From assembly GCF_958301595.1 (NCBI RefSeq), contig NZ_CATQJU010000001.1, positions 620,001 to 684,000 of the forward strand: a DNA stretch of 64,000 nucleotides, read 5' to 3'. Made by a program: the position numbers and the translations under genes. The DNA is from Porphyromonas vaginalis (GTDB taxonomy: Bacteria; Bacteroidota; Bacteroidia; Bacteroidales; Porphyromonadaceae). The stretch's first letter is position 1; each line of letters begins with the position of its first letter. Positions 4,541 through 51,672 of the stretch are shown piece after piece. The notes under the pieces are model-generated. The model had not been told where the DNA came from, did no database searches, and was given only the letters and a program-made list of their open reading frames with translations.

Positions 4541-4654
4541 CAGCCCTCTAATCTCTAACTTCTAATCTCTCCCCCTCCGAACTCTCCGATTCCTCCGATG
4601 CTCTCCGATCCCTAATTTCTAATCTCTAACTTCTAACCTCTAATCTCTAATAAC
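4541..4654 (+). repeat. Heptad (TCTAATC) array leading into a CCACGTGG repeat
   Basis: Units of TCTAATC, TCTAACT and TCTAACC at 4541-4566 and 4612-4650 are separated by related CTCCGAT-type 7-mers. The array runs into CACATCTTTACAG, a variant of the TAnnTTTG box that begins the ~270-bp CCACGTGG repeat. Confidence 0.75.
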
Positions 4655-4935
4655 ACATCTTTACAGGGAAATTCGTCCGATTCCCTCCTTTCTTGAATAT
4701 CCATGTGGAAAATCTCAAATCTCCACGTGGATATTTTTTATTTTCCACGTGGGCGTCATTCATTTCCTCCGAAGTTTCATTTGATTCCTCCGAGGAGTTT
4801 TTTATTTCCTACCTGGGAAATAAAAATTCTCCACGTGGAGATTTTGAAATATCCACGTGGAAATCACTTTTCACCGACACAGTGCCGTTTCGATATGTAG
4901 TCGGATCTAAATTATTGTAGCAAGCTGGCGTTGGG
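4655..4935 (+). repeat. CCACGTGG interspersed repeat, copy 1
   Basis: About 280 bases shared with 26698-26955 (inverted), 39448-39537 (truncated), 51336-51615 (inverted) and, diverged, 61780-61940. It opens with ATCTTTAC and has a hairpin with 13-bp arms (4696-4708 and 4723-4735) around a 14-nt loop, then a T-rich run. Further CCACGTGG palindromes and CCTCCGAAGTTTCATT blocks follow, and it ends at CTAAATTATTGTA. The left arm carries one C-to-T change that still pairs as G-U. Confidence 0.85.
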
Positions 4936-5240
4936 TCGGAGCGATCGGAGCTATCAGAGCGATCAGAGGTATCGGAGAACTAGTGCCTCTAGTGTCACTA
5001 GTTTCTCTAGCTAACCGCCAACAGCCAACGGACACAACGGACGCACTCCGACTAGATACTAGCTGTGACCGAGTCCTGGACGGACGGACGCACGAGAGTA
5101 TCTAGTGGGAGGGCGTCCGTTGTCGAACGATCTTGACTCGACACTAGCCGTGACGACACCCTGTAGGAACGCACGAGAGTGTCTAGTGGGAGGGCGTCCG
5201 TCCCCGTTAATACCACGACGCTGTAACCTTTGACACAACG
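4936..5240. repeat. Mixed short repeats (GATCGGAG, GCCAACAG, GGACGCAC types)
   Basis: The segment holds GATCGGAG-like units (4938-4980), CACTAGTG units (4980-5012), GCCAACAGCCAACGG (5018-5033) and two copies of a GGACGCACGAGAGT.TCTAGTGGGAGGGCGTCC block (near 5085 and 5168) whose ends are complementary. All recur elsewhere in the window between genes. No credible gene is present. Confidence 0.6.
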
Positions 5241-5428
5241 GACGCACAGATCGTGCATCCCTACTGGACGATATTTCGCTTTGACGGGGACGGACGCACA
5301 GATCGTGCGTCCCTACTGGACGATATTTCGCTTTGACGGGGACGGACGCACAGATCGTGCGTCCCTACTGGACGATATTTCGCTTTGACGGGGACGGACG
5401 CACAGATCGTGCGTCCCTACAGGACTCA
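5241..5428. repeat. 52-bp tandem repeat with GGACGCAC hairpin
   Basis: Units begin at 5241, 5293, 5345 and 5397, an exact 52-bp period with three full and one partial copy. Each contains the inverted repeat GGACGCAC-AGATC-GTGCGTCC, then CTACTGGACGATATTTCGC. Copies are almost identical (first unit has GTGCAT). No variable spacers, so it is not a CRISPR array. The hairpin motif recurs at 19378-19500. Confidence 0.9.
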
Positions 5429-5489
5429 GTAACACCAGCCAATCGCTAACCGTTAAGAGCTAAGAGCCAACAGCTAATTTCACGAAGCG

Positions 5490-5520
5490 TTGGTTGGTTC
5501 GAAAATATTGTGTACCTTTG
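5490..5520 (+). promoter_or_regulatory. Promoter of tRNA-Met
   Basis: -33 TTGG (5490-5493), a 19-bp spacer and -7 TACCTTTG (5513-5520), about 31 bases before the tRNA. Fits the Bacteroidota promoter. Confidence 0.75.
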
Positions 5521-5551
5521 CATCGTCTAAGGGGGAAGCCCCTCTGTGGAT

Positions 5552-5625
5552 GGCGAGGTAGCTCAGCTGGTTAGAGCGTCGGATTCATAATCCGGAGGTC
5601 GAGGGATCGTGACCCTCTCTCGCTA
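5552..5625 (+). tRNA. tRNA-Met (anticodon CAT)
   Basis: It folds as a cloverleaf: acceptor GGCGAGG with TCTCGCT, D arm, anticodon loop TTCATAA, T stem GAGGG/CCCTC. The T loop reads ATCGTGA instead of the usual TTCGANN, and the acceptor has G-U at both ends. CCA is not encoded. Elongator Met or the CAT-type Ile tRNA cannot be told apart by sequence alone here. Confidence 0.9.
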
Positions 5626-5637
5626 CAAACGAATCGA

Positions 5638-5695
5638 GTAGGTCGGGAAACGAAAGTTTTCTGACCTACTTTCGGTATGACGGGCATGTCATACC
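5638..5695 (+). other. Two hairpins downstream of tRNA-Met
   Basis: AGTAGGTC (from 5638) pairs with GACCTACT (to 5671) with inner GAAA/TTTTC pairing. GGTATGAC (5674) pairs with GTCATACC (5695) around GGGCAT. They precede the likely terminator at 5698. Confidence 0.55.
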
Positions 5696-5697
5696 AA

Positions 5698-5739
5698 AGA
5701 AGAACAGCACCTTGACTGCGGTCAGGGTGCTGTTCTTCT
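5698..5739 (+). terminator. Likely intrinsic terminator after tRNA-Met
   Basis: A 14-bp stem, AGAAGAACAGCACC (5698-5711) with GGTGCTGTTCTTCT (5726-5739), closes a 14-base loop. It is followed by TGTTATTAA. Strong stem but only a weak T run. Confidence 0.65.
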
Positions 5740-5773
5740 GTTATTAACTGAGGTGTAGCAGGCGATGCTACCT

Positions 5774-5946
5774 CAGACTGTTGCATAAAGGCGAATCGCT
5801 GTGTTGCTTTCGGGATTCGGCTTCGGTCACATACGGAGGTATGCTCCCTTCAGACCTCACCCTCAGCGCCTTGCTCTTCATCCTTTCTGCAAAGTCTGGA
5901 CAATTGCTTGCAAGATTTTGAACCTGTTGACTTTTGCAACAGACTC
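5774..5946. mobile_element. 175-bp-type MITE, copy A
   Basis: About 173 bases with imperfect terminal inverted repeats CAGACTGTTGCA...TGCAACAGACTC. It is highly similar over its whole length to the copy at 9665-9839, including CGGCTTCGGT and ATACGGAGGTATGCTCCC. It has no coding capacity of its own. Its right end coincides with the first base of the ridA stop codon (5946-5948, minus strand). Possible degenerate 5-bp target duplication TACCT/TACTT. Confidence 0.8.
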
Positions 5947-6323
5947 TACTTGTGTGCGATCACTTCGATCTCGACGAGTCCGCCCTTGGGGAGGGTCTTG
6001 ACAGCAACGGCAGAGCGTGCTGGGAAAGCACCTGAGAAGTGCTTCTCGTAGACTGCATTCATCGCAGCAAAGTCGCCCATATCAGCGAGGAAGCAGGTGG
6101 TCTTGACAACCTGATCGAAGGTAAAGCCAGCCTCGTCGAGGATAGCCTTCAGATTGCGAAAGACTTGCTCCGTCTGTGCTGAGACATCTTCTGATACGAA
6201 AGCACCAGACTTGGGATCCAGGCCAAGCTGACCCGAGGTGATGAGCATGTCGCCGAAGGCTATTGCCTGGCTGTAAGGTCCGATAGCTGCAGGAGCGTTT
6301 GGAGTGGAAATTACTTTTTTCAT
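5946..6323 (-). CDS. ridA: RidA/YjgF family enamine/imine deaminase
   Basis: 125 aa, the normal length for RidA, a cytosolic homotrimer that hydrolyses reactive enamine/imine intermediates released by PLP enzymes such as threonine dehydratase. Family marks are GPYSQA (15-20), the Arg that binds the carboxylate (Arg103 in ARSAVAV) and Glu118 near the C-terminus (GGLVEIEVIAHK). It is the last gene of the dnaN-to-ridA run, 28 bases after rlmB. The MITE downstream ends on its stop codon and so has not shortened the protein detectably. Function is a family assignment. Confidence 0.93.
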   Translation of the reverse strand: MKKVISTPNAPAAIGPYSQAIAFGDMLITSGQLGLDPKSGAFVSEDVSAQTEQVFRNLKAILDEAGFTFDQVVKTTCFLADMGDFAAMNAVYEKHFSGAFPARSAVAVKTLPKGGLVEIEVIAHK

Positions 6324-6351
6324 AGTATACTTCTGATTGTATTGTGAACTT

Positions 6352-7095
6352 TTATAGGTTTGCGTTGTGCTGGCGAACGACCTCGTAGAGCATGATGCCG
6401 GTAGCGACCGATACGTTGAGCGAGGAGATCTGTCCCAGCTGTGGTATGGAGACGCGGTCGGTGAGTTGCTTGAGGACGCCCGTGGAGATCCCTTTTTGCT
6501 CCGACCCCATGACGATGCCCAGGGGTGGCGTCATCGGGAGGGAGGTGTAGTTTGTCGTGGCGTCTACATCGGCGCCGACGAGCTGTAGCCCGCTATCCCG
6601 TAGGAAGCGGCAAGCGGTCACGAGGTCACGCTCACGGCAGACGGGTATGCGCATGAGTGCTCCAGCGGAAGCGTTGACCGCATCGGCCGTAACGGAGACG
6701 CTGTCTCGCTCGGGGATGACAATAGCGTGAACCCCAGAGCATTCGCAAGTACGCGCAATAGCACCAAAGTTGCGCACGTCGGTGACCCCGTCGAGCAGTA
6801 CGACAAAAGGCATCTGCCCCTCGTCATAAAGCATCGGTATGAGCAACTCTAGACGGGTGTAGGTGATGGGCGAGATGAGTGCTACGACCCCCTGGTGGGC
6901 ACCTCGTGTGAAGCGGTTGAGACGCTCGGCGGGAACCTCCATGACAGGTATGCCCTGAGCGCGTGCGGTGCGTTTGATCTCTAGGAGTTCGCCCGTGGCG
7001 GCTCCTTTTTTCATATAGATCTTGTCTATGTCGCTATGAGAGGCTAGGCTCTCTGAGAGAGCGTGTATGCCGTAGATGAGTTTTTGCTTAATCAT
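6352..7095 (-). CDS. rlmB: 23S rRNA (guanosine-2'-O-)-methyltransferase RlmB-like, SpoU/TrmH family
   Basis: 247 aa, the usual size for RlmB, which methylates the ribose of G2251 in 23S rRNA with SAM. The N-terminal substrate-binding domain (about 1-80) precedes the SPOUT domain with all three motifs: NFGAIAR (109-115), MGSEQKG (196-202) and SSLNVSVA (224-231). The ATG overlaps the recN 3' end by 8 bases, so translation is probably coupled. TrmH-family members are hard to separate, and the exact target is inferred. Confidence 0.9.
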   Translation of the reverse strand: MIKQKLIYGIHALSESLASHSDIDKIYMKKGAATGELLEIKRTARAQGIPVMEVPAERLNRFTRGAHQGVVALISPITYTRLELLIPMLYDEGQMPFVVLLDGVTDVRNFGAIARTCECSGVHAIVIPERDSVSVTADAVNASAGALMRIPVCRERDLVTACRFLRDSGLQLVGADVDATTNYTSLPMTPPLGIVMGSEQKGISTGVLKQLTDRVSIPQLGQISSLNVSVATGIMLYEVVRQHNANL

Positions 7096-8770
7096 GTGCT
7101 GTAAGTAATGTGTGTGCGGCAGCGATAGCCTCTGGGGTTATCTGGTCGCCACTCTGGAGGCGCGCTATCTCGTTGATACGCTCTTCGGGTGTGAGGAGGC
7201 GAAGGTGCGAGTGGGTCTCGCCGTTGGTCTCCTCTTTATATATAAGTATATGCTGGGTGGCCGCCGAAGCGATCTGCGGTAGGTGGGTGATGACGAAGAT
7301 CTGCTGGTGCTCGCCCATCGTGTGGAGCATGTCGCCTATGCGGGAGGCAGCGATGCCCGAGGTGCCGGTGTCGATCTCGTCAAAGACGATAGCAGGCGAA
7401 CTGGCCAGCTCAGCGTGGCTCGAGGCGGCTTGACTGCGCAAAGCCTTAAGTGCTAGCATCAGTCGGGCTATCTCACCGCCCGAAGCGATGTCGGTGACTG
7501 GGCGGAGTGGCTGATCGCTGTTGGCTGAAAGCAGGAAGTCGACCTGATCCATGCCTCGCTCGGTCGGCTTGTCGAGGAGCTGGAGTGCTATGTCAAAGCG
7601 AGCGTGCGGCATCTCCAGCTGGTAGAGCGTCTTGGTGACGCTCCGTGCGATCTGTGTAGCGACCTTGGCGCGCGCCTCGTGGAGTTGCTTGCCTAGGGTG
7701 AGCACCTCTGTCCGCTGCTGGAGCACTTCGGTGCGTAGTGCGGCTAGCTCCTGCTCGTACTGAGCGGTGTGAGCGAGCTTGGCACCAAGCTCTTGGCTGT
7801 ACTCGACGAGCTCTTCGGGGGATAGGAGGTTGTGCTTTTTGAGCAAAGCATTGACTCCGCCTAGGATCGTGTTGATCTCCTCTAAGCGCGCAGGATTGTA
7901 GGCGACCTCGCCCTGCAGACGGTTCAAGTCGCTCTCGATGTCGTCTAGCTCGATGACGAGGCTCCGCATGCGCTCTGTGTAATTGGTCAGCTCGGGAAGG
8001 TAAGCAGCGGTCTGCTCCATCTGCTCCTGCGCCGTGGTGAGCTGATCAACGATGCTATGCGGTCTGTTGAGTAGTGCGAGGATGCTCTGCAAGCCCTCCT
8101 GTATCTCCTGTGTGTGGGTGAGTCGCTCCGCCTCGTCGGCAAGGTCAGTGAGCGAGTACTGCTCGAGCTTGAGCGCAGCGATCTCCTCGTAAGCTCGGCT
8201 GTTCAGCTCATACTCCGCCTCGGCTTGCTGCGCCTCTGTGCGCAGCTTCTTGAGTCGTATGGCGTTGTCGTGGTACTGCTGATAGGCGCTGTGGTAGGCC
8301 TCGACAAGCTGCGCCTCGGCACCTAGCTGCGAGTCGATGAGTGCGATCTGATAAGCGCCCTCACGGAGCAAGAGGTTGCGATGCTGCGAGTGAACGTCCA
8401 GCAGGAGTGCGCCCAGTTCCTCCAGCTGAACGAGGGTGATGGGCGTATCATTGACAAAGATGCGACTACGTCCCGTCTGTCGTATCTCACGACGTACGAG
8501 ACAGCTCTCTTCGGTCTCTAGCTCCTGCGCTTGCATCCATTCGATAACCTGAGGGCTGAGCTGCGTGAACTCCCCCTCGATAACCGCCTTCTGGCAGCCC
8601 TGACGAATGGTCGATATGTCGGCACGCCCTCCTGCCAGCAGTTGTAGGGCTGAGACAAAGATACTCTTGCCCGCTCCCGTTTCACCTGTGACTGCTATGA
8701 GTCCCGTGGGGAAGGTGCAGCTAAGCTCCTCAATGAGAATGTAGTCCCGTATGTATAGGCTGTGCAGCAT
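7088..8770 (-). CDS. recN: DNA repair protein RecN
   Basis: 560 aa, SMC-like ATPase that acts in double-strand break repair. Walker A GETGAGKS is at 29-36. A long coiled-coil-rich middle (about 150-370) separates it from the C-terminal head with the ABC signature IASGGEIARLML and Walker B AIVFDEIDTGTSG (about 435-475). It lies 9 bases after the DUF4835 gene. DUF4835-recN-rlmB is a compact arrangement, consistent with co-transcription from the dnaN promoter. Confidence 0.96.
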   Translation of the reverse strand: MLHSLYIRDYILIEELSCTFPTGLIAVTGETGAGKSIFVSALQLLAGGRADISTIRQGCQKAVIEGEFTQLSPQVIEWMQAQELETEESCLVRREIRQTGRSRIFVNDTPITLVQLEELGALLLDVHSQHRNLLLREGAYQIALIDSQLGAEAQLVEAYHSAYQQYHDNAIRLKKLRTEAQQAEAEYELNSRAYEEIAALKLEQYSLTDLADEAERLTHTQEIQEGLQSILALLNRPHSIVDQLTTAQEQMEQTAAYLPELTNYTERMRSLVIELDDIESDLNRLQGEVAYNPARLEEINTILGGVNALLKKHNLLSPEELVEYSQELGAKLAHTAQYEQELAALRTEVLQQRTEVLTLGKQLHEARAKVATQIARSVTKTLYQLEMPHARFDIALQLLDKPTERGMDQVDFLLSANSDQPLRPVTDIASGGEIARLMLALKALRSQAASSHAELASSPAIVFDEIDTGTSGIAASRIGDMLHTMGEHQQIFVITHLPQIASAATQHILIYKEETNGETHSHLRLLTPEERINEIARLQSGDQITPEAIAAAHTLLTAHD

Positions 8771-8779
8771 GGAGTGTAG

Positions 8780-9880: not shown

Positions 9881-9884
9881 AAGA

Positions 9885-11114: not shown

Positions 11115-11141
11115 GGCTATCTCTCGTGTGGCGTGACGGCT

Positions 11142-11909: not shown

Positions 11910-11931
11910 AGTCTATGCAAATTCGGGGTCC

Positions 11932-13140: not shown

Positions 13141-13168
13141 ATATGATTCCTATCTACTGATTATACCA

Positions 13169-13176
13169 CAAAGATA
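13169..13176 (-). promoter_or_regulatory. -7 box of the dnaN operon
   Basis: TATCTTTG on the minus strand, 29 bases upstream of the dnaN ATG. No clear TTTG at -33. Confidence 0.55.
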
Positions 13177-13225: not shown

Positions 13226-13279
13226 GCTCTAACCTCTAGCTTCTAACCTCTAATCTCTAACTTCTTTTTCGTATCTTTG
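13226..13279 (+). promoter_or_regulatory. Heptad array and promoter of the saccharopine dehydrogenase-like gene
   Basis: TCTAACC, TCTAGCT, TCTAACC, TCTAATC and TCTAACT follow in register (13228-13264), then TTTTTCG and the -7 box TATCTTTG (13272-13279). The heptads take the place where a -33 TTTG would be expected. Confidence 0.7.
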
Positions 13280-13380: not shown

Positions 13381-14580
13381 ATGACAAGAGTGATCATCAT
13401 CGGAGCTGGTGGCGTAGGCACCGTAGTAGCTCACAAAGTGGCTCAGAATGCTGAGACCTTTACTGACATTATGCTGGCGAGCCGCACTAAGTCTAAGTGT
13501 GACGCTATCGCAGCACAGATACAAAACGTCAAGATCCAGACCGCACAGGTGGATGCGGACGATGTGGAGCAGCTCGTGAAGCTCTTCGAAAGCTTCCGTC
13601 CAGACATCTGCATCAACGTAGCACTCCCCTACCAAGATCTCACCATCATGGAGGCGTGTCTCAAGGCAGGCGTCAACTACCTTGACACGGCAAACTATGA
13701 GCCCCTTGACGAGGCTAAGTATCAGTACAGCTGGCAGTGGGCCTACCACGACCGCTTTAAGGAGGCTGGGCTGACTGCCGTCCTAGGGTGTGGCTTTGAC
13801 CCAGGTGTGACCAGTATCTTCACCGCTTACGCTGCCAAGCATCACTTTGACGAGATACACTACCTCGACATCGTGGACTGCAACGGTGGTGACCACCACA
13901 AGGCGTTTGCGACCAACTTCAACCCAGAGATCAATATCCGTGAGATCACCCAAAAGGGTAAGTACTACCACGAGGGCGAGTGGATCGAGACGGAGCCTCA
14001 GGAGATACATCGTCCGCTGCACTACCCAGGCATCGGCGTACGCGAGTCTTACCTACTCTACCACGAGGAGCTGGAGTCCCTCGTCAAGCACTTCCCCACG
14101 ATACGTCGGGCGCGCTTCTGGATGACCTTCGGTGAGGAGTATCTCAAGTACCTCGAGGTGATCCAAAACATTGGTATGGCGAGCATCGAGCCGATCAACT
14201 ACAATGGCCAGGAGATCGTGCCGATCCAATTCCTCAAGGCTGTCCTACCCAATCCTAAGGAGCTGGGCGAGAACTATACGGGCGAGACCTCTATCGGCTG
14301 CCGTATTCGTGGCGTCAAGGACGGCAAGGAGCGTACCTATTATATATGGAACAACTGCTCTCACCAAGCAGCCTACCGTGAGACCGGCACGCAGGGTGTC
14401 AGCTACACGACGGGTGTCCCCGCTACGACGGGCGCACTGATGCTCGCCAAGGGTCTGTGGGGTGGCGCTGGCGTCTTCAACGTCGAGCAGTTTGACCCAA
14501 ATCCCTTCCTCGAGGAGGTGGCTCGTCAGGGACTGCCCTGGCATGAGTCCTTCGACATCGACATCGAGTTCGAGAAGTAA
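13381..14580 (+). CDS. Saccharopine dehydrogenase family protein, carboxynorspermidine dehydrogenase-like
   Basis: 399 aa. The N-terminal Rossmann fold has VIIIGAGGVGTVVAHK (4-19), a dinucleotide-binding motif. The body resembles carboxynorspermidine/carboxyspermidine dehydrogenases, which reduce the Schiff base of aspartate semialdehyde and a diamine in polyamine synthesis. True saccharopine dehydrogenase of lysine metabolism is the alternative. It stands alone, with its own promoter and a strong terminator after it. Its codon use is like that of its neighbours. Confidence 0.85.
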   Translation: MTRVIIIGAGGVGTVVAHKVAQNAETFTDIMLASRTKSKCDAIAAQIQNVKIQTAQVDADDVEQLVKLFESFRPDICINVALPYQDLTIMEACLKAGVNYLDTANYEPLDEAKYQYSWQWAYHDRFKEAGLTAVLGCGFDPGVTSIFTAYAAKHHFDEIHYLDIVDCNGGDHHKAFATNFNPEINIREITQKGKYYHEGEWIETEPQEIHRPLHYPGIGVRESYLLYHEELESLVKHFPTIRRARFWMTFGEEYLKYLEVIQNIGMASIEPINYNGQEIVPIQFLKAVLPNPKELGENYTGETSIGCRIRGVKDGKERTYYIWNNCSHQAAYRETGTQGVSYTTGVPATTGALMLAKGLWGGAGVFNVEQFDPNPFLEEVARQGLPWHESFDIDIEFEK

Positions 14581-14599
14581 GACTTACACATAAGCTAGA

Positions 14600-16700: not shown

Positions 16701-19085
16701 TTAAGAGACTTTACCCAGATAAGAGACGGCTCCCGTAGTAGGGCGATGTATCGTCGGCAACTCGATGGTCGCCTCGTCAATGTCTAGAATGAGGTAAGAG
16801 GGCAACTGCTGGAGTAGCTCTTGCTGTGCTGGCATGAGGGCTGCCCACGCATCGTAAGCGATGAAGGCGAAGTCGTAAGTGGTCAGATCAACTTGCTCAG
16901 CAAAAGTCTCCCCGCTCCACGACACACGATCCGAGAGCTCTGTCGCAGGCTTAGCAAGGTGTGACGAGAGTGGCATCAGCGTGATCGGACTATCGGCACG
17001 CTCCGTCACCTGCTCGGCAACGAGTAGTAGCTCTTTGTCTTCAGGCCGCTGCATCAACACGAGCGGATGTGCTATCGGGGTCTGACCATTGTCCACATAG
17101 ATACCCACCGAGCAAGGTGCCTCATGAGCAAAAGTGGCAATAATCTCCTCAAAGGAGTGCGAGTTCTGCTCTTTCTTAGCTTGACGACGGCGACCAGTCA
17201 TAACTTTCCACCTGCGGGTGAGCTTATCGCTATATGCGACTAGGTCGCGGTCTTTCTTGTCTTGCGAAAGGTTGACACTTGCCCCGAGGAGCAGCAGGTT
17301 GCTCTGGATATGATTGGCGTGCGAGAGAACCGCCTCGGGCACCGATTCGGCGATCTCATACTTACGCTCCACGGAGAGGTCTAGCTGCTTGGCCATCTCC
17401 ATCGGCGCGGCAAAGCTACTGGCGTAGTAGTGATCCGCATCGATGGTGCTAATGTCTGTATCCGTGGTGACGTGCATCAGCGTACAGGCCACCTGTGGAG
17501 AGGTGCCACCACAGAGCCTATGGAAGAACTCTAAGAGCGTCACGCCCGTCTCAGCACGACCGAACGAGATGAGCACCTGACCTGTCGCGTGCTCTAGGCT
17601 TTGCGGTGTTTTCTTTTTCTTAAGGAGCCAGTCGATTAGTTGCAGCGTTGGAGCGGTCATGATGGTAGTCACGAGCGTCATCATCACGAGGATGGTAAAG
17701 AGAACGGTCGAGAGGACTCCTAGGTCCAGTCCGATGCGCAGTACGACCAGCTCCATCAGCCCTCGGGTGTTCATATAAGCCCCTAGGTAAAGGCTTTCGC
17801 GGCGCTGTATGCCACAGCTTCGTGCCGCTAGGTAGGTGCCGCCCATTTTGCCAATAACCGCTACAAGCGTACAGATCAGGAAGAGGCCCCACAGCTGAGG
17901 CGTATTGACCAAGCCCAGCTCTGTGCGCAAACCTGAGCTCACGAAGAAGAGCGGCAGGAGGAGCAAAAGTGCTAGGTCCTCGACTTTTTCCTTGACAATC
18001 ACTCGGAAGTCTAGGTTCTCAGGCATGACAAGCCCCAGCATGAAGGCGCCAAAGAGCGCATGCATACTCATGATCTCGGTGAAGTAGGCACTCGCCATGA
18101 GGAGGATGAAGATGAGCCCCATGAGCGACTTGGAGAGTACCTCACGATGTCTCACACGCCGCCCGAGGAGTCCGAAGAGTGGTCGCAAGATGCCAAAGAT
18201 GACCGCCAGATAGAGCGCGAGGAAGAGCATATTGTAGAGGGCACTCGTGAAGCTCCCCCCCTGGCTGACCGCCATGATGGCCGCCAGCATGAGCCACGCC
18301 ACGATGTCTCCCATGGCTGCGGTCGAGAGTGCCAAGCGGCCTAGGTGACTATGCGAGAGCGAGCGCTCCTGGATGATACGCGCCAAGACGGGGAAGGCGG
18401 TGATGCTGAGCGAGATGCCCACAAAGAGAGCGAGCGACAAGAAGCTACTCCCCTCGCTCAGTAGCTCAGGGCGACTGTACAGCCCATAAGTGAGGAGGAT
18501 GCCTAGGATAAAGGGAAAGATAATCCCCGACTGACTGATGATGAAAGCTTGCTGCGCCTGACCCTTGAGGTCTTTCATACGCAGCTCCATACCTATGGTA
18601 AACATGAAGAGGATCAGTCCGAACTGACTGAGCAACTCTAGATTGCCCAGGCTGTGCACAGGGAAGAGCGTTTCCATCGCTTCTGGCCAAACGGCTCCCA
18701 GCAAGCTCGGGCCGAGCAATATACCAGCTAGGATTTCTCCGATGACCGTCGGCTGATGCAATCGTGCGAAGATCCACCCGACGACACGTACCACGAGCAG
18801 GATGACGACCAACTGGATCAGCAACATCCCTATGTCTGAGGCTGCATGAGCACGGACTGAACTCACAAACGACTGCCACGGCGAAGCCTCACCCGCAGGC
18901 GAAAGGGTGGGCAATTCGGGAGCTTCGCTCAGGGACTCGGTCATAGCTACAGGAGGCGTGACGAGAGCCTCCGAAGGGCCAGTCATAGCCTGGTCAGTAG
19001 CAGCGACCCACCACAAGAGTGCCACAAAGATGAGCATTAGCCCGCCGTAGAGCCACCACGCTAGCTGTCGTTGATGTGTATTCAT
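16701..19085 (-). CDS. CPA2-type cation:proton antiporter with C-terminal stress-protein-like domain
   Basis: 794 aa from the ATG at 19085. The frame is open a further 108 codons upstream, but those cover palindromic repeats and the -7 box, so I chose the start MNTHQRQLAWWLYGG. One N-terminal membrane segment, then a Na+/H+ exchanger domain of about 12 segments (from about 100 to 500: GEILAGILLGPSLLG, ALFVGISLSITAFPVLARI, AFMLGLVMPENLDFR). The last 280 residues are soluble and resemble universal-stress-protein pairs. It probably exchanges Na+ or K+ for H+. It forms a unit with glgB. Confidence 0.88.
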   Translation of the reverse strand: MNTHQRQLAWWLYGGLMLIFVALLWWVAATDQAMTGPSEALVTPPVAMTESLSEAPELPTLSPAGEASPWQSFVSSVRAHAASDIGMLLIQLVVILLVVRVVGWIFARLHQPTVIGEILAGILLGPSLLGAVWPEAMETLFPVHSLGNLELLSQFGLILFMFTIGMELRMKDLKGQAQQAFIISQSGIIFPFILGILLTYGLYSRPELLSEGSSFLSLALFVGISLSITAFPVLARIIQERSLSHSHLGRLALSTAAMGDIVAWLMLAAIMAVSQGGSFTSALYNMLFLALYLAVIFGILRPLFGLLGRRVRHREVLSKSLMGLIFILLMASAYFTEIMSMHALFGAFMLGLVMPENLDFRVIVKEKVEDLALLLLLPLFFVSSGLRTELGLVNTPQLWGLFLICTLVAVIGKMGGTYLAARSCGIQRRESLYLGAYMNTRGLMELVVLRIGLDLGVLSTVLFTILVMMTLVTTIMTAPTLQLIDWLLKKKKTPQSLEHATGQVLISFGRAETGVTLLEFFHRLCGGTSPQVACTLMHVTTDTDISTIDADHYYASSFAAPMEMAKQLDLSVERKYEIAESVPEAVLSHANHIQSNLLLLGASVNLSQDKKDRDLVAYSDKLTRRWKVMTGRRRQAKKEQNSHSFEEIIATFAHEAPCSVGIYVDNGQTPIAHPLVLMQRPEDKELLLVAEQVTERADSPITLMPLSSHLAKPATELSDRVSWSGETFAEQVDLTTYDFAFIAYDAWAALMPAQQELLQQLPSYLILDIDEATIELPTIHRPTTGAVSYLGKVS

Positions 19086-23193: not shown

Positions 23194-23255
23194 CAAAGGT
23201 ACGAATTTAGAGGTTAGAGATTAGAAGTTAGAGGGTAGAAGTTAGAGATTAGAGG
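23194..23255 (-). promoter_or_regulatory. Heptad array and promoter of pyrE
   Basis: On the minus strand, in-register units TCTAATC, TCTAACT, TCTACCC, TCTAACT, TCTAATC, TCTAACC (23207-23252) run into AAATTCG and TACCTTTG (23194-23201). About seven heptads occupy the whole region upstream of the -7 box. Confidence 0.7.
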
Positions 23256-26567: not shown

Positions 26568-26697
26568 ATAGCACCTCCTCGGGCGACTATCCTGCGACTA
26601 TGCTACCACAGTCACTAGCCCCCTCGGATTGTGGAAGCAAAGGTACAATAAATTTTGGAATGGAAAAGTACGTGTGGTCTTATGGTCAGGAAAAACG

Positions 26698-26955
26698 CAA
26701 CGCTGGGTCGTTACAATAATTTAGAGCTGACTACATATCGATACGAGGGCGTGTCGGAGAAAAGTGATTTCCACGTGGATATTTCGAAATCCCCACGTGG
26801 AGAATAAAAAATTCTTCGGAGGAATGAAATGAAACTTCGGAGGAAATGATTCGCCTCCACGTGGGGAATAAAAAATATCCACGTGGAGATTTGAGATTTC
26901 CCACGTGGATATTCGAGAAAGGAGGGAATCGGATAAATTTCCCCGTAAAGATATG
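26698..26955 (-). repeat. CCACGTGG interspersed repeat, copy 2
   Basis: Inverted relative to copy 1. From the right end: AAAGATATG (complement of CATATCTTT), the 13-bp-arm hairpin around 26877-26916, then CCTCCACGTGG, the AATGAAATGAAACTTCGGAGG block, two more CCACGTGG and the AATAATTTAG end. It fills most of the 560-base gap between tRNA-Gly and the fumarase gene. Confidence 0.85.
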
Positions 26956-27000
26956 TTATTAGAGATTAGAGGTTAGAAGTGAGAGATTAGAAGTGAGAGA
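26956..27000 (-). repeat. Heptad array upstream of repeat copy 2
   Basis: TAGAGAT/TAGAGGT/TAGAAGT/GAGAGAT units, which are TCTAATC-type heptads on the minus strand, lead into the CATATCTTT end of copy 2. Confidence 0.7.
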
Positions 27001-34175: not shown

Positions 34176-34229
34176 AGAGCTAAGAGTGAGTTTTGAGAGA
34201 TATCCTATATAGAGCTATCAACTTTCACC

Positions 34230-34263
34230 CAAAGGTACGAAAAAAGAGATTAGAAGCTAGAGG
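34230..34263 (-). promoter_or_regulatory. Heptad pair and promoter of the AI-2E-dnaX unit
   Basis: On the minus strand CCTCTAGCTTCTAATCTC then TTTTTTCG and TACCTTTG (34230-34237). The TTTTTCG-TAnCTTTG junction is shared with the promoter at 13272. Confidence 0.65.
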
Positions 34264-34279
34264 CCGAGAGGTGTCTGCT

Positions 34280-36196
34280 ATGGAAGAAAATGAGTACCTT
34301 AGCAGTCCCGTATGTATACTTGGTCGCAATCATCGTATGCCTTCCTCTGAAAACTCCTCTCCTACGATCGACGTCATGAAGCGTCTGGTCGCTCAGCAAA
34401 AGTCTTCTCGCCATCAGCATCACGAGCCGATGGCTGACGAGCTGTCTAGCTGCCCGATGACTCCTATGTATGATAAGGTAGTACACGATACGACTACCAG
34501 TCATCGTTCACACGACAAGGCTGCGACTGACCAACCCATCGCTAATAAGAAGGGAACCCTCGTCTCTAAGACGACCCCAACGTCTCAACCAACAGCTACG
34601 CGCCAACAGCCAACAGCCAGCACCAAACAACCAACAGCTAACAGCCAACAGCCAACGGCCAGCACCAAACAACCAACAGCCAACAGCCAACAGCCAACGG
34701 CCAAACAGCCAACAGCTAACAGCCAACAGACAACCGACAAACAGCCAACAGCTAACAGCCAACAGCCAACAGCCAAACAGACAACAGCTAAACAGACAAC
34801 AGCTAACAGCCAACAGACAACCGACAAACAGCTAGAGGAAAAAATCTGGTGGATGAGTGCCTGGCGGTGGTTGCGTCGACTCCTAGACTTCCGCGAGGAT
34901 AAGGCGGGCGATGTGGCAACCATCGAGTCGCTCAAGGGGGATGTGGAGTTTCGTGGTACCAAGCTCTGGATCCTCATTTGCGCTATCCTCGTAGCCTCGA
35001 TAGGTCTGAATGTCAATTCGACGGCGGTCATCATCGGTGCAATGCTTATCTCCCCGCTGATGGGCCCAATCATCGGCTTCGGACTGGGCTTCGGCATTGC
35101 CGACCTAGATCTCGTACGTAAGTCGCTGCGCAACCTCGCCCTGACGACGCTCTTCAGTATCCTGACAGCTACGATCTACTTCCTCTTAACTCCGCTTGAT
35201 CAGCCCGGCAGTGAGCTGCTGGGACGTACGGAGCCGTCGCTGTATGATGTATTGATTGCATTCTTTGGCGGTGCTGCGGGACTGATAGCAGGTAGTAGCA
35301 AGAGCAAGGGGCAGGTACTCCCCGGCGTGGCTATCGCTACGGCACTTATGCCACCGCTCTGTACAGCGGGCTTTGGGCTGGCTACGGGCAATTGGGCATT
35401 CTTCTTCGGTGCTATCTACCTTTACATCATCAACTCGGTCTTTATCGCCTTCGCCACCTTCGTGATGGTACGCATCATGCGCTTCCCGATGAAGGCAGTC
35501 GCCTCGGGCGATATGCGCAAGCGTAGCTATCGCTGGATCACGGTGATCGCCGTCTGCACACTGATACCGAGTATCTACTTAAGTATCCGTCTGGTGCGAG
35601 ACTCCTATCAGGAGCAGCGTGCCAAGCAGTTTGTCGCAGACCACTTTGCTCCCCCAGCTCATCAAGTGATCCGTCAGTCTTTCATACGAGCGGATGGGGA
35701 CAAGCGTGCCTACATAGACGTAGTCCTGATCGGCAAGCCTCTCTCGGCTCAGACGATAGACAGCATAGCTACCCTACTGCCTAGCTATGGGCTGTCTAAC
35801 TTCGACCTACAGGTGCACCAGGGGATCGACAACGAGGCTCCTACGGACTACGAGCAGCTGGGCGGCGTCCTGCTGCGTGACCTCTACGAGCGGTCTGAGC
35901 GCACCGCCTCTGAGCAGCGTGCCGAGATCGACTCGCTGCGTCGTACGCTCCTGCGCTACGACTACTACAAGTCTCTAACGCACGACGTGAGCGATGAGGC
36001 GAAAGCGGTATTTACCGATATTAGCAAGGTGCGGCTCATGCCCTCGATGGAGTTTATCCAAGGACAAGACTCCGTCCTCCATATCCTCGTGACGACCCCA
36101 TCGCATCGCATCTCCCCGGCCGAGCGTAACAAGCTCGAGCAGTGGCTACAGAGACGTACCAAAACGGATGCGCTCGAGCTGATCCTGACGAACTAA
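34280..36196 (+). CDS. DUF389 membrane protein with a repeat-derived N-terminal extension
   Basis: 638 aa from the first ATG. The conserved part starts near 34853 (MSAWRWLRRLL) with FREDKAGDVATIES and then about six membrane segments including SIGLNVNSTAVIIGAMLISP, typical of DUF389, and a soluble C-terminal domain. Before it, 34586-34832 encodes a Gln/Thr/Asn/Pro-rich stretch (QQPTANS-like) made of GCCAACAG units that otherwise occur between genes here. The real start may therefore be the ATG at 34853, with GAGGAA upstream. The role is unknown. Confidence 0.75.
   Translation: MEENEYLSSPVCILGRNHRMPSSENSSPTIDVMKRLVAQQKSSRHQHHEPMADELSSCPMTPMYDKVVHDTTTSHRSHDKAATDQPIANKKGTLVSKTTPTSQPTATRQQPTASTKQPTANSQQPTASTKQPTANSQQPTAKQPTANSQQTTDKQPTANSQQPTAKQTTAKQTTANSQQTTDKQLEEKIWWMSAWRWLRRLLDFREDKAGDVATIESLKGDVEFRGTKLWILICAILVASIGLNVNSTAVIIGAMLISPLMGPIIGFGLGFGIADLDLVRKSLRNLALTTLFSILTATIYFLLTPLDQPGSELLGRTEPSLYDVLIAFFGGAAGLIAGSSKSKGQVLPGVAIATALMPPLCTAGFGLATGNWAFFFGAIYLYIINSVFIAFATFVMVRIMRFPMKAVASGDMRKRSYRWITVIAVCTLIPSIYLSIRLVRDSYQEQRAKQFVADHFAPPAHQVIRQSFIRADGDKRAYIDVVLIGKPLSAQTIDSIATLLPSYGLSNFDLQVHQGIDNEAPTDYEQLGGVLLRDLYERSERTASEQRAEIDSLRRTLLRYDYYKSLTHDVSDEAKAVFTDISKVRLMPSMEFIQGQDSVLHILVTTPSHRISPAERNKLEQWLQRRTKTDALELILTN
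34586..34832 (+). repeat. GCCAACAG/GCTAACAG short repeats within the DUF389 frame
   Basis: About 25 units of 7-8 bases (CCAACAG, CTAACAG, CCAAACAG) with no in-frame stop. The same motif is intergenic at 5018, 5470, 45720 and 51705. Confidence 0.8.
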
Positions 36197-39412: not shown

Positions 39413-39447
39413 CTCTAATCTCTATCCTCTAGCCTCTAATCTCTATT
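39413..39447 (+). repeat. Heptad array leading into repeat copy 3
   Basis: CTCTAATCTCTATCCTCTAG and TCTAATCTCTATTT units run into CATATCTTTACGG. Confidence 0.7.
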
Positions 39448-39537
39448 TACATATCTTTACGGAGAAATTCGTCCGATTTCCTCCTTTCTCGAATATCCAC
39501 GTGGAAAATCTCAAATCTCCACGTGGATATTTTTTAT
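39448..39537 (+). repeat. CCACGTGG interspersed repeat, copy 3 (truncated)
   Basis: Only the first ~90 bases, from CATATCTTTACGG through the 13-bp hairpin and T run, are present. The ISL3 element begins right after TTTTTTAT at 39538, so the rest was lost or displaced. Confidence 0.85.
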
Positions 39538-39540
39538 GGT

Positions 39541-41236: not shown

Positions 41237-41280
41237 CTCTAACCTCTAGTGAGGTCTAATCTCTTTTTTCAGTACCTTTG
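41237..41280 (+). promoter_or_regulatory. Heptad units and promoter of tRNA-Leu
   Basis: TCTCTAACCTCTAG and TCTAATC units, then TCTTTTTTCAG and TACCTTTG (41273-41280). Confidence 0.7.
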
Positions 41281-41328: not shown

Positions 41329-41417
41329 GCCCAGATGGTGGAATCGGTAGACACGAGGGACTTAAACTCCCTTGGCCAATTGCGGTCGTGCGGGTTCAAG
41401 TCCCGCTCTGGGTACCA
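41329..41417 (+). tRNA. tRNA-Leu (anticodon TAA)
   Basis: Class II tRNA of 89 nt with a long variable arm. Starts GCCCAGATGGTGGAATCGG and ends CTCTGGGTACCA with CCA encoded. The anticodon loop CTTAAAC gives TAA. Confidence 0.96.
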
Positions 41418-44566: not shown

Positions 44567-44580
44567 AAACCACAACTGCT

Positions 44581-45624: not shown

Positions 45625-45673
45625 AGCAATCGTCTAAGCCTACTTCATCACCTGCGTAAGGTGACAAAATAGC

Positions 45674-45701
45674 GAGGGAGACTCAGCAGTGAGTCTCCCT
45701 C
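45674..45701 (+). terminator. Terminator hairpin after korB
   Basis: Perfect 12-bp stem GAGGGAGACTCA and TGAGTCTCCCTC with loop GCAG. No long T run follows. Confidence 0.7.
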
Positions 45702-45766
45702 ACTGTCTCTCTGGCCGTTGGCTCTTGGCTGTTGGCTAGGGTCACTAATGCTCCTAGTGGCACTAG

Positions 45767-45822
45767 CTCTCTAATCTCTAACTTCTAATCTCTACCCTCT
45801 AATCTCTAATTTCGTACCTTTG
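45767..45822 (+). promoter_or_regulatory. Heptad array and promoter of leuS
   Basis: Units TCTAATC, TCTAACT, TCTAATC, TCTACCC, TCTAATC and TCTAATT in perfect 7-bp register (45770-45811), then TCG and TACCTTTG (45815-45822). The ATG is 22 bases further on. Confidence 0.75.
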
Positions 45823-45843
45823 CGCTATAATCGAGAGAACTGT

Positions 45844-48660
<2,817 letters not shown>

Positions 48661-48744
48661 TGATAAAGTCTTCGGGTCCTGTCGTACTTGCGCGGGGCCA
48701 AGGGAAGACTATTCCATCTATCTCTAGAAAACAAATCATATAGT

Positions 48745-49722
48745 ATGACTCAAGCTTTAGCAGTTCCCAATAGTAATCGAGCGAAAGCGTGGTACTTCGT
48801 CCACGACTTCTTTTTTATCGTACTCGGTGTCTGTCTCTATGTACTCGGCTGGGCGGGCTTCGTCCTCTCGCAGGAGATCGCTACGGGCGGACTAGCGGGT
48901 GTTACGACCATCATACAGATCGCTACAAATATCCCCGCCTTTATCCCTTATAACATCATCAACGTCGGGCTACTGATTGTTTCGATCATCTTCTTAGGAT
49001 GGCGTTACTCCGTCAAGACCCTCATCGGGGTCATCCTGATGGGTATAGCCATTCCTATCGGTCAAGCTCTTTTTGGAGATCCTAATACAGAGGTGTACCA
49101 CAATCTGAGCCACTGGCTCACAGACAACATACCTAATGTAGGGCCTCTGCTCAGAGAAGAGCGCTTTATGGCGGTTATCATCGGTGGTATCCTGTGCGGT
49201 AGTGGCCTCTTTCTGGTCTTCCACGTGAATGGCAGTACGGGTGGTACGGATGTCATTGTATCCCTCTTTAACAAGTACACAACGCTCTCACTGGGGCGCG
49301 CTATGATCCTGATCGATGCGACGATCGTGACCACCTCTTACTTTGTCAATGTATATATATCGGGCAAAGATCCACAGCTCGGTGCCGAGCTACTCACCTT
49401 CTCAATCGTGGAGGTAGTCTTCTGCGCTATGACGCTCGACTACTGGACCAATAGCAATAAGCACTCGATACAGCTCTTTATCTTCAGCAAGAAGTACAAA
49501 GAGATCAACGAGGCTATCACCCAGCGCCTGCACCGTGGCTGTACACTCGTGCATGCTGACGGAGGCTACTCGCAGGAGGAGATGCGTATCCTCATGGTAG
49601 TCACCCGCAAGGCTCAACTACAGAGCATCAATCGTATTATCAAGGAGATCGACCCCGATGCGTTCGTCTCGGAGGGGACTGTGCATGGGGTCTACGGACG
49701 AGGCTTTGACAATCTGAAGTAA
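48745..49722 (+). CDS. YitT family membrane protein (DUF161 + DUF2179)
   Basis: 325 aa from the ATG at 48745. Five or six membrane segments (HDFFFIVLGVCLYVLGWAGF onward) with the repeated GGxxGxxxxI pattern (TGGLAGVTTII and STGGTDVIVSLFNKYT), then a soluble C-terminal domain of about 80 residues (GCTLVHADGGYSQEEMRILM), the DUF2179 fold. The function is unknown. Five bases past its promoter-less start it follows leuS by 84 bases, so it may be co-transcribed. Confidence 0.85.
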   Translation: MTQALAVPNSNRAKAWYFVHDFFFIVLGVCLYVLGWAGFVLSQEIATGGLAGVTTIIQIATNIPAFIPYNIINVGLLIVSIIFLGWRYSVKTLIGVILMGIAIPIGQALFGDPNTEVYHNLSHWLTDNIPNVGPLLREERFMAVIIGGILCGSGLFLVFHVNGSTGGTDVIVSLFNKYTTLSLGRAMILIDATIVTTSYFVNVYISGKDPQLGAELLTFSIVEVVFCAMTLDYWTNSNKHSIQLFIFSKKYKEINEAITQRLHRGCTLVHADGGYSQEEMRILMVVTRKAQLQSINRIIKEIDPDAFVSEGTVHGVYGRGFDNLK

Positions 49723-49740
49723 AGTCAACGCCGAGGCGAT

Positions 49741-50127
49741 ATGCCCGCAACGAACGGACACAATAAAGCACTGCTCGCTCTATTAGGCTGTATGCTGGTA
49801 GGGGGAGTGGTGCTTTACTTATATACCCCCGAGAGCCTGCAGATACCGCGCTGCCCCTTCCTGCAGCTCACGGGGTGGCAATGCCCAGGCTGTGGCTCCA
49901 TGCGAGGCATTCACGCATTGCTCCATGGCGACTTAGGACGGGTGCTACAGCTCAACGTCCTGCTCATCCCAGCTCTGATCTACTTTGTCCTCCTCGTGAT
50001 GTTGGAGCTGACCCGTCCTCATAGTTTGCGAGCTGAGAGACTCTACCGCCGCTTCTCAGGCCGTACCGCCAGTTGGATCATCTTTGCGATCATCGTCGCA
50101 TGGGGTATAGGTCGTAATCTGATCTAA
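49741..50127 (+). CDS. DUF2752 small membrane protein
   Basis: 128 aa with three membrane segments. The family motif is QCPGCGSMRGIHALLHGDL (about 48-66). Its role is unknown. It lies 18 bases after the YitT gene and 17 before the PAP2 gene, a likely operon. Confidence 0.85.
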   Translation: MPATNGHNKALLALLGCMLVGGVVLYLYTPESLQIPRCPFLQLTGWQCPGCGSMRGIHALLHGDLGRVLQLNVLLIPALIYFVLLVMLELTRPHSLRAERLYRRFSGRTASWIIFAIIVAWGIGRNLI

Positions 50128-50144
50128 GACAACTTTAGAGCTCT

Positions 50145-51242
50145 ATGCGACGTCTTACGCTTCTTACCCTCGTCCTCTTACTCCTCCTACGCCCTTGTAA
50201 CTGGACAGTGGCGCAGAGTAACTCATCAGATACACTAGCCCTTTCGCTAGATACGCTAGCTCCTTCGCCCGATCCCCTCAGCGTGCTACTCCCTGGAGCT
50301 CTCTTTGCGGCATATCCACTACATCATAGTGATGTAGCTATCCGTACGACTCGTCACTCACTCCTAGGTACTCGCTGGCGTAATCACTACGACGACCACA
50401 TGCAGTTTGCCTCCTATGGACTACAACTGGCTATGCGCTGTGGTGGCGCCACGGGACGCTCTCGCACATGGGGTGAGATGCTGACAGCCGATGCTATAGG
50501 TGCCCTAGGAACCGCCACCATCGTCCTATCAGTCAAAAGTGGGGTACAGCGCATGCGTCCCGATGGATCTACGGCTAATAGCTTTCCCTCGGGACACACC
50601 GCGACAGCCTTCCTCGGAGCCGAGCTTTTTAACCTAGAGTATGGTGCCGACTACCCGCTGCTGTCTCATCTGCAGTACCTCTTTGCCACTTCTGTCGCAT
50701 TCGGACGCATGGCCAATAACCGTCACTGGTACTCTGATGTCCTCTGGGGCGGACTCATAGGAGTTTCGATGGCACATGTGGGCTACCTCATGAGCGATCT
50801 CATCTTCGGGCGCTACACGCCAGCTGTAGGTCGAGAGATCCCAGACGACTACTTCTACCTATCACTCCTGTGCAGTCGCCACTTGTCGGGCGGTGCTGGC
50901 TGTGTCGGCGCGCAGCTTGGCTGGCAGACCGCTTCTCTCAACTATGCTGCAGAGCTCTCACTACGACCTGACAAGGAGCACCCCACACTCCATGGCGATC
51001 TCCTTGTGGGTGTGCCCCTCTACCAGTGGCGATACTTAGAGCTACGACACAGCTATGGCCTCGGTATCGGCTACGACAAGGCTGCGGGAGAGCAGAGCTA
51101 TGCTCATCTGCAGGCAGGTCTCGAGGCCTATCCTCGACTACGCTATCTTGACAAGCTGGGACTCTTCCTCCGGCTCCACTGCGAGCCTTATCGTCAGAGC
51201 TACTTGACGCTAGGAGTCTCGCTACGTCATCGCTACTTGTGA
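50145..51242 (+). CDS. PAP2 family phosphatase with C-terminal barrel-like region
   Basis: 365 aa with a signal peptide (about 1-24). The three phosphatase motifs are present: KSGVQRMRPDG (about 126-136), SFPSGHTATA (about 142-151) and GRMANNRHWYSDVLWG (about 187-202). The last 130 residues are rich in beta-type patterns (ELRHSYGLGIGYDKAAG), like an outer-membrane domain. It may dephosphorylate lipid A or undecaprenyl pyrophosphate; the substrate is inferred from the family. Confidence 0.85.
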   Translation: MRRLTLLTLVLLLLLRPCNWTVAQSNSSDTLALSLDTLAPSPDPLSVLLPGALFAAYPLHHSDVAIRTTRHSLLGTRWRNHYDDHMQFASYGLQLAMRCGGATGRSRTWGEMLTADAIGALGTATIVLSVKSGVQRMRPDGSTANSFPSGHTATAFLGAELFNLEYGADYPLLSHLQYLFATSVAFGRMANNRHWYSDVLWGGLIGVSMAHVGYLMSDLIFGRYTPAVGREIPDDYFYLSLLCSRHLSGGAGCVGAQLGWQTASLNYAAELSLRPDKEHPTLHGDLLVGVPLYQWRYLELRHSYGLGIGYDKAAGEQSYAHLQAGLEAYPRLRYLDKLGLFLRLHCEPYRQSYLTLGVSLRHRYL

Positions 51243-51283
51243 CCTGGAGGGGGAAGGTAACTCCTCCTCGCTGGCCCTTACGT

Positions 51284-51321
51284 GCAGCTCATGACAGAGC
51301 TATTATGATGCGTCAGCCCTG
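51284..51321. repeat. Solo ISAs1-type end
   Basis: GCAGCTCATGACAGAGCTAT then TATGATGCGTCAGCCCTG. It matches the copy at 51798 for about 36 bases and the ISAs1 remnant end at 41211. Confidence 0.6.
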
Positions 51322-51335
51322 TCTGGACAAAATTA

Positions 51336-51615
51336 GACGCTGGCTCGTTGCAATAATTTAGAACTGATTACATATTGAGACGGCGCAATGTCGGGGAAAA
51401 GCGATCCCCACGTGGATATTTCGAAATCCCCACGTGGAGAATAAAAAATTCCTCGGAGGAATGAAATGAAACTTCGGAGGAATGAAATGAAACTTCGGAA
51501 GAAATGATTCGCCTCCACGTGGAAAAAGAAAAATATCCACGTGGAGATTTGAGATTCCCCACGTGGATATTCGAGAAAGGAGGGAATCGGACGAATTTCC
51601 CCGTAAAGATATGTA
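51336..51615 (-). repeat. CCACGTGG interspersed repeat, copy 4
   Basis: Inverted. It contains all parts of copy 1, and the AATGAAATGAAACTTCGG block is doubled (20-bp tandem at about 51458-51500). The hairpin arms are intact. Confidence 0.85.
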
Positions 51616-51672
51616 AATAGAGATTAGAGGTTAGAGATTAGAAGTTAGAGATTAGAAGCTAGAGATTAGAGA
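51616..51672 (-). repeat. Heptad array upstream of repeat copy 4
   Basis: Eight TAGAGAT/TAGAGGT/TAGAAGT units, which are TCTAATC-type on the minus strand, next to the CATATCTTTAC end of copy 4. Confidence 0.75.

What the first reader, a model, noticed from the sequence alone, without database searches (positions are those of the whole stretch)
4541..51672. Seven-base repeat arrays (TCTAATC/TCTAACY) sit on the -7 promoter box at nine sites
Arrays lie at 4541-4654, 13226-13263, 23207-23255, 26956-27000, 34246-34263, 39413-39447, 41237-41264, 45767-45812 and 51616-51672. At all nine the TCTAA strand reads toward a TAnnTTTG-type box within about 4-20 bases: five drive genes (saccharopine dehydrogenase-like, pyrE, AI-2E/dnaX, tRNA-Leu, leuS), and four precede the ATCTTTAC front of the CCACGTGG repeat. 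They cover the place of the -33 TTTG, which is absent in these promoters but present at secDF, rrn, tRNA-Met and tRNA-Lys. Unit number varies from about 2 to 9. That pattern suggests either a substitute upstream element (a protein or sigma contact every 7 bp, 21 bp per two turns) or a simple-sequence tract whose length can change expression.
Basis: partly seen in the sequence, partly recalled or inferred. Interest (0 to 1): 0.82.

Follow-up and report, generated by a model that had tools for sequence, protein, structure and literature searches.

The report
Heptamer arrays abutting promoters, not promoter parts
In one small group of Porphyromonas species the gaps between genes hold a spreading, fast-changing seven-letter DNA repeat that runs right up to the start signals of some genes, but some matching promoters in sister species do without it, so it is more likely repetitive filler than an essential part of the promoter.

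Summary
The nine TCTAAYY arrays are real and far above chance (38 doublet matches, 0.23 expected). Their TCTAA strand reads toward a TAnnTTTG box (five genes) or the ATCTTTAC front of a dispersed repeat, here called B (four). "All nine" does not generalise. In a 464-kb sample of the same genome, 17 of 63 arrays adjoin a gene-type box, 20 adjoin B, 26 neither (20/20/23 with a laxer box). Among 26 genus genomes five are rich in arrays (175-525 doublets; 0-3 elsewhere). Register to the box is tight (TCTAA mostly 10, 17, 24 bp upstream, +-1), but TCTAA does not peak at the -33 place. Of 65 readable orthologs of 18 array promoters, 50 keep an array and 15 do not; none of the 15 has TTTG at 23-25 bp. 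A separately chosen gene, the trigger factor, does in two species. In four promoters, similarity falls to shuffled level upstream of the -7 box; one promoter array shares 74-81 identical flanking bp with three B arrays. Best reading: a clade-specific, recombining intergenic heptamer repeat abutting functional edges; a promoter role stays possible. New variant of the TAACTGA-type heptamer arrays.

The parts
4547..4652 (+). two TCTAAYY arrays (4547-4574, 4604-4652) split by CTCCGAT-type units; the second adjoins the front of a B repeat (CTTTAC at 4659)
13228..13269 (+). array upstream of TATCTTTG (13272-13279) of a gene whose best NCBIfam match is carboxynorspermidine synthase, below that model's cut-off (13381-14580)
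23198..23253 (-). array upstream of TACCTTTG (23194-23201), pyrE
26957..26998 (-). array adjoining the front of a B repeat (CTTTAC at 26950, - strand)
34234..34261 (-). short array (about two TCTA units) upstream of TACCTTTG (34230-34237), AI-2E-transporter-like gene (weak family match)
39414..39448 (+). array adjoining the front of a B repeat
41237..41264 (+). broken array (two short pieces) upstream of TACCTTTG (41273-41280), tRNA-Leu 41329-41417
45770..45818 (+). array upstream of TACCTTTG (45815-45822), leuS
51615..51677 (-). array adjoining a B repeat (CTTTAC at 51608, - strand); its left flank is identical over 74-76 bp to arrays at two other B copies and at one gene promoter

Best explanation
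The arrays are the edge of a dispersed, fast-changing intergenic repeat family of one Porphyromonas clade. Shown: sampled arrays are mostly intergenic, often have nonamer words (CTAGTGCCA, TCGGAGCNA types) on their 5' side, face outward in most close opposite pairs, and many end with the TCTAAYY strand facing a -7 box, repeat B, a start codon, an antisense stop codon or (by eye) a hairpin. Shown: in four promoters where one species has the array and another does not, similarity is lost upstream of the -7 box but kept downstream; and one gene-promoter array shares a long identical flank with arrays of three B copies. Inferred: arrays and their outer flanks move between loci by ectopic recombination or gene conversion, with the array (and perhaps the common TTTTCGTAYCTTTG promoter motif) as the homology, which would also carry the fixed register. 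Inferred: TCTAAYY persists because it is tolerated at gene edges: stops in all six frames, no G on one strand, no fold as a single array. The promoter proper is then the extended -7 box, and the array is not essential to it.
For: Clade limits: doublets 525 (G000), 324 (G002), 379 (G013), 175 (G018), 344 (G020); 0-3 in the other 21 genus genomes. 58 of 63 sampled arrays mostly outside crude genes. Arrays within 500 bp of each other: outward 8, inward 0, same direction 8 in G000; 6, 1, 5 in G020; 2, 1, 0 in 51 kb of G013, the inward ones enclosing B-like repeats by eye. Nonamer words (my choice of words, made after seeing flanks) in the 5' flank of 39 of 63 arrays, the 3' flank of 23 of 63, and 17% of random intergenic 60-mers. 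Array 3' ends abut start codons 13 and antisense stops 11 times among 119 arrays of two genomes; 5' ends abut stops 7 times and an antisense start once (the distance windows for starts and stops differ). Four promoters (trigger factor, #9, #13, #19): identity to array-less orthologs 80-92% over 60 bp downstream and 53-60% upstream, the latter at shuffled level (means 51-56%), while the two array-less sisters G013 and G002 keep 67-93% upstream between themselves. One 142-aa gene's promoter array (L044) and three B arrays share 74-81 identical left-flank bp, then diverge inside the array; orthologs of that promoter have other flanks. Cassette TCTAAYYTCGTAYCTTTG (up to 2 mismatches): 24-32 copies in each of the five genomes, 0-2 in four others, reversed control 0-2. 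Six-frame stops; no fold.
Against: 50 of 65 readable orthologs keep an array, more than pure drift might allow. Register is close to fixed: in 49 ortholog arrays the nearest TCTAA falls in phase 3 (34), 2 (9), 4 (4), others 2; recombination explains this only if the box itself belongs to the copied homology, which is inferred. Long-flank copying involves a single gene promoter; the other 7 of 11 sharing pairs are among B arrays. G013 and G002 are closer to each other than to G000, so one search is an imperfect control. Neighbour avoidance, and the excess of matching units two apart in G000 (29 of 112, expected 21.0), are not explained. The trigger factor shows a TTTG/array exchange.
Confidence: 0.55

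Rival explanations
1. The array is an upstream promoter element (sigma, alpha or activator contact every 7 bp) that replaces the -33 TTTG.
For: Enrichment and strict orientation at TAnnTTTG; fixed register with a unit starting at 24 +-1 bp, the same place as TTTG in the rrn and secDF promoters; 0 of 30 array promoters have TTTG there; the trigger-factor promoter has the array in two species and TTTG at 24 bp in two; 50 of 65 orthologs keep an array.
Against: No occupancy peak at 22-25 bp. Of 15 array-less orthologs, 0 have TTTG at 23-25 bp (the base rate is low, so this alone is weak). G002 leuS has two units only, at 10 and 17 bp. 43-46 of 63 arrays are not at a gene-type box. A -33 motif is weak in array-less boxes too (11 of 70, control places 3 and 3), and PMC7366714 (passages) reports that it was not identified in Flavobacterium johnsoniae.
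Confidence: 0.2
2. The array is an insulator: G-free, unfolded RNA with pyrimidine-C steps every 7 nt would be a Rho loading site for transcripts running from the intergenic island into a gene edge, and six-frame stops would block translation.
For: Rho is present in the 4 genomes checked. TCTAAYY reads into the gene edge in 24 of 32 counted abutments. No RNA fold of two window arrays. Upstream neighbour co-directional for 26 of 32 array promoters, 5 skipped, against 84 of 136 array-less boxes.
Against: No transcript data. The orientation difference is modest and rests on crude gene calls; another crude count gave 13 of 17. Arrays directly before start codons would be harmful if they were strong terminators. 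The Rho preference is recalled knowledge.
Confidence: 0.15
3. Contingency switch: unit number changes by slippage and tunes expression, as at Haemophilus hmwA.
For: Exact TCTAA within 80 bp of the box, in the order G000, G020, G013, G018, G002: leuS 5, 7, 6, 4, 2; pyrE 6, 2, 7, 6, 6.
Against: Identical neighbours avoided; several genes are housekeeping (leuS, pyrE); outer flanks change with the arrays. No strain data.
Confidence: 0.1

Closest known systems
TAACTGA heptamer direct repeats of Beggiatoaceae, Cyanobacteria and some Bacteroidetes (MacGregor 2015, PMC4679880; abstract, sections 9 and 12 and passages seen)
   Same: Many short intergenic 7-bp arrays, sporadic by lineage, mostly one orientation toward a start codon, sometimes reversed just after a stop codon, stops in all forward frames, other heptamers nearby in some Bacteroidetes, differences between relatives mostly in 7-nt steps in two Cyanothece strains.
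   Different: Different unit (TCTAAYY); stops in all six frames rather than the three forward ones; a large share adjoins the -7 box in fixed register; nonamer words beside the arrays and outward pairs; adjoining repeat B.
(ATCTTTC)n repeats of the hmw1A/hmw2A promoters of nontypeable Haemophilus influenzae (PMC8262952, passages seen)
   Same: 7-bp arrays whose end units overlap promoter boxes.
   Different: hmwA adhesin genes only, one repeated unit, between two promoters, number known to tune expression; here 24-32 promoter cassettes per genome, mixed units, upstream of the box, housekeeping genes among them.
Short tandemly repeated repetitive (STRR) heptamers of cyanobacteria (recalled; brought nothing to the point)
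   Same: Lineage-specific intergenic heptamer arrays.
   Different: Unit and promoter register; comparison from memory only.

Membership tests
Intergenic heptamer direct-repeat arrays (TAACTGA kind, PMC4679880) | many short 7-bp arrays, mostly intergenic | tested here: met
   63 arrays in 464 kb, 58 mostly outside crude genes
Intergenic heptamer direct-repeat arrays (TAACTGA kind, PMC4679880) | unit TAACTGA | tested here: not met
   most frequent units in the G000 sample: TCTAATC 98, TCTAACC 72, TCTAACT 44, TCTAATT 20
[quoted passage not shown]
   13 of 119 arrays abut a start codon; 37 and 27 of 119 adjoin a -7-type box or B
Upstream promoter element / -33 substitute | fixed register to the -7 box | tested here: met
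Upstream promoter element / -33 substitute | preferential occupancy of the -33 place | tested here: not met
   19, 23, 18, 21, 13, 12 of 30 in successive places
Upstream promoter element / -33 substitute | array and TTTG replace each other between species | tested here: inconclusive
   0 of 15 array-less orthologs have TTTG at 23-25 bp; the trigger-factor promoter does in 2 of 2 array-less species
Upstream promoter element / -33 substitute | effect on transcription | not testable with these tools
   no expression data
Phase-variable simple-sequence repeat | runs of identical units prone to slippage | tested here: not met
   identical neighbours 18 of 160 (expected 29.3) and 12 of 133 (25.2)
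Phase-variable simple-sequence repeat | unit number differs among strains of a species | not testable with these tools
   one genome per species held

The most novel reading that the evidence does not exclude
The clade has evolved a genome-wide gatekeeper sequence: polar TCTAAYY arrays in fixed register to the -7 box and at gene ends, which stop transcription (Rho loading) and translation (six-frame stops) from entering genes, and which are spread and renewed by recombination between loci.
Probability: 0.12. Interest if true: 0.8.

Novelty: new variant of a known kind. Interest (0 to 1): 0.42.

Why it matters
It shows how closely repetitive DNA can encroach on bacterial promoters: in the four cases aligned, upstream sequence differs completely up to the -7 box between related species while the gene and box are kept. 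It also warns that a repeat found at every promoter in one window can mislead about promoter architecture. If the arrays do insulate or bind a protein, the clade would offer 24-32 natural promoter cassettes per genome for testing what a Bacteroidota promoter needs upstream of the -7 box. I found no description of these arrays in print: a search of the open-access library for Porphyromonas asaccharolytica with tandem repeat and intergenic gave no paper, and heptamer, tandem repeats, promoter and Porphyromonas gave one listed paper, on gastric cancer (listing only). Subscription journals are mostly not in that library.

Tried and rejected
TCTAA as a replacement for a -33 TTTG: occupancy, ortholog and base-rate tests mostly say no; the trigger-factor case stands as counter-example. 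Recent 7-bp slippage as source of the arrays: disfavoured by neighbour avoidance. B repeats as the source of all arrays: the B front (up to 3 mismatches) is found 100 times in G000, 20 in G020, 25 in G018, but 1 in G002 and 2 in G013, which hold as many promoter cassettes. Other heptamers in array-less Porphyromonas: Tandem Repeats Finder (score 50) found none of period 7 in 240 kb from 9 genomes. Read-through insulation by neighbour orientation: suggestive only. Rfam at gathering score: only rRNA and tRNA in the window. Of the paper searches, one search gave the hmw literature, another the Beggiatoa paper, another the promoter papers, nothing to the point.

Rows dropped or placed by hand: one search used 18 of the 24 rows; of the six left out, one repeats another row, two had fewer than two TCTAA, and three had arrays or short arrays (L253 TATATTTG, the L042 aspartate/lysine/asparagine-type tRNA-synthetase gene, the window AI-2E gene); for the last two, one search shows arrays in G020 as well. 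In one search three G018 orthologs at contig ends were left out (rows 0, 6, 13), four were not found (rows 1, 3, 17, 18), the G020 ortholog of row 20 (box TATCTTTA) was counted as array by hand, and two arrays that lie further off (row 15 in G020, row 21 in G018) were counted as kept. The 18 promoters were picked because G000 has the array there. In one search the G018 DHH-gene locus was read at a wrong offset and is not used; the trigger factor was not found in G018. Gene calls are crude longest-ORF calls.
Full report
Setting. The window lies in a 2.52-Mb genome. The best named leuS relatives are a Porphyromonadaceae bacterium and Porphyromonas sp. HMSC065F10 (67% and 65%; records very near the window's genome may be left out there). 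G020 is a single contig of 2,186,370 bases, which from memory fits P. asaccharolytica; that name is recalled. Genes: leuS, pyrE, secDF, dnaX, a carboxynorspermidine-synthase-like and an AI-2E-like gene, tRNAs.

The observation. The nine arrays are there. Corrections are in the observation check. Genome-wide the doublet TCTAAYYTCTAAYY occurs 525 times, against 17 for the pattern read backwards. Among 61 genomes (this one and 60 relatives), five of the genus hold 175-525 and every other genome 0-7.

Where arrays lie. From the window and twenty 20-kb stretches of the same genome I found 63 arrays. Seventeen read into TAnnTTTG, 20 into the front of repeat B, 26 into neither; with a laxer box 20, 20 and 23. 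In a 480-kb sample of G020 the figures are 17, 7 and 32 of 56. The 'neither' class includes arrays that end a few bases before a start codon, arrays that reach an antisense stop codon, and, by eye, arrays before hairpins. Box adjacency is nevertheless far above the 4.4% of random intergenic 50-mers, and absent on the other side (0 of 63).

Register. At boxes, TCTAA starts mostly 10, 17, 24 or 31 bp upstream of TA, sometimes one base more or less. At B fronts the phase is nearly always the same (57 of 63 TCTAA counts in G000, 21 of 21 in G020). Across orthologs the phase holds (34, 9 and 4 of 49 arrays in three adjacent phases, 2 elsewhere). TTTG of the rrn and secDF promoters sits at 23-24 bp, so a unit does fall on the -33 place. 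But the first four unit places are about equally filled, with decline further out, and array-less boxes of this clade seldom have TTTG there (11 of 70 and 5 of 55).

Comparison of orthologs. For 18 array promoters of G000 I read four sister species: array kept in 14 of 18 (G020), 13 of 18 (G013), 12 of 18 (G002) and 11 of 11 readable (G018). The other 15 have fewer than two TCTAA within 60 bp, two of them a single unit; 0 of 15 have TTTG at 23-25 bp. Four further genes were read separately: leuS and pyrE have the array in all five species and a DHH-domain gene in the four read; the trigger factor (Pfam Trigger_N) has an array in G000 and G020 and TTTG at 24 bp in G013 and G002. Unit numbers and outer flanks differ between species at most of these loci; G000 and G018 pyrE arrays are identical. 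Where the array is absent, similarity is lost upstream of the -7 box in the four promoters aligned (80-92% downstream, 53-60% upstream). The upstream values equal those of shuffled sequence (means 51-56%), whereas the array-less pair G013/G002 keeps 67-93% upstream; that pair is more closely related, so the control is imperfect.

Composition of the islands. The 5' flanks of arrays are rich in nonamer words (39 of 63; 3' flanks 23 of 63; 17% of random intergenic 60-mers). Opposite arrays within 500 bp face outward in 16 of 18 pairs over three genomes (8 of 8, 6 of 7, 2 of 3); same-direction neighbours are as common in G000 (8) and nearly so in G020 (5). The two outward pairs folded form long RNA hairpins, while the two single arrays folded do not fold. 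One gene-promoter array and three B arrays at unlinked places share 74-81 identical flanking bases and then diverge inside the array. Identical neighbouring units are avoided in both genomes; units two apart match more often than expected in G000 (29 of 112, 21.0 expected), less clearly in G020 (22 of 96, 18.3). B fronts are abundant in G000 only (100, against 20-25 in G018 and G020 and 1-2 in G002 and G013), so arrays do not depend on B.

Reading. These facts fit an intergenic repeat family that is copied and exchanged between loci and stops where a functional edge begins. The fixed register may be carried along by recombination through the common TTTTCGTAYCTTTG motif; that step is inferred. 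A promoter role is not excluded: array retention is high, and the trigger-factor exchange is what a substitute element would give. The unit gives stop codons in all six frames, which may explain why it is tolerated at gene edges and rare inside genes.

Known kinds. The nearest is the TAACTGA heptamer family of Beggiatoaceae, Cyanobacteria and some Bacteroidetes (PMC4679880; abstract, two sections and passages seen). It shares the intergenic, oriented, lineage-restricted habit, not the unit, the promoter register or the nonamers. The hmwA repeats of Haemophilus (PMC8262952, passages seen) share the overlap of units with promoter boxes. On promoters, PMC7366714 (passages seen) gives the -7/-33 consensus deduced from Bacteroides fragilis and notes that the -33 motif was not identified in F. 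johnsoniae; PMC9723704 (passages seen) gives TAnnTTTG as the -7 box in F. psychrophilum.

Noticed in passing
window about 4655-4950, 26650-26955, 39449-39540, 51300-51612: Repeat B: ATCTTTAC front, CCACGTGG hairpins and 21-bp units of the CTCCGAAGTTTCATTTGATT type; its front is found 100 times in this genome but 1-25 times in the four sister species, which suggests recent expansion.
   Followed up: partly
L044 about 17190-17340, L191 3271-3422, window about 51680-51830: Near arrays, a further dispersed sequence with roughly inverted ends (GGCTGACGCATTATAAT ... ATAATGTGTCAGCC type), possibly a small non-autonomous mobile element (by eye).
   Followed up: no
window 34602-34821: About 31 copies of a GCCAACA heptamer inside the mechanical open reading frame 34193-36196; the TIGR00271/TIGR00341 match starts only at residues 258-259, after the array, so the true gene may begin later.
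   Followed up: no
window about 3850-4400, - strand: Three similar rrn promoters in tandem, each with TTTG 24 bp before TAACTTTG or TACCTTTG.
   Followed up: no
window 5238-5425: 52-bp tandem repeat (3.6 copies, 98% alike) upstream of tRNA-Met; pieces with GTGCGTCCCTAC recur elsewhere, for example in the G020 sample.
   Followed up: no
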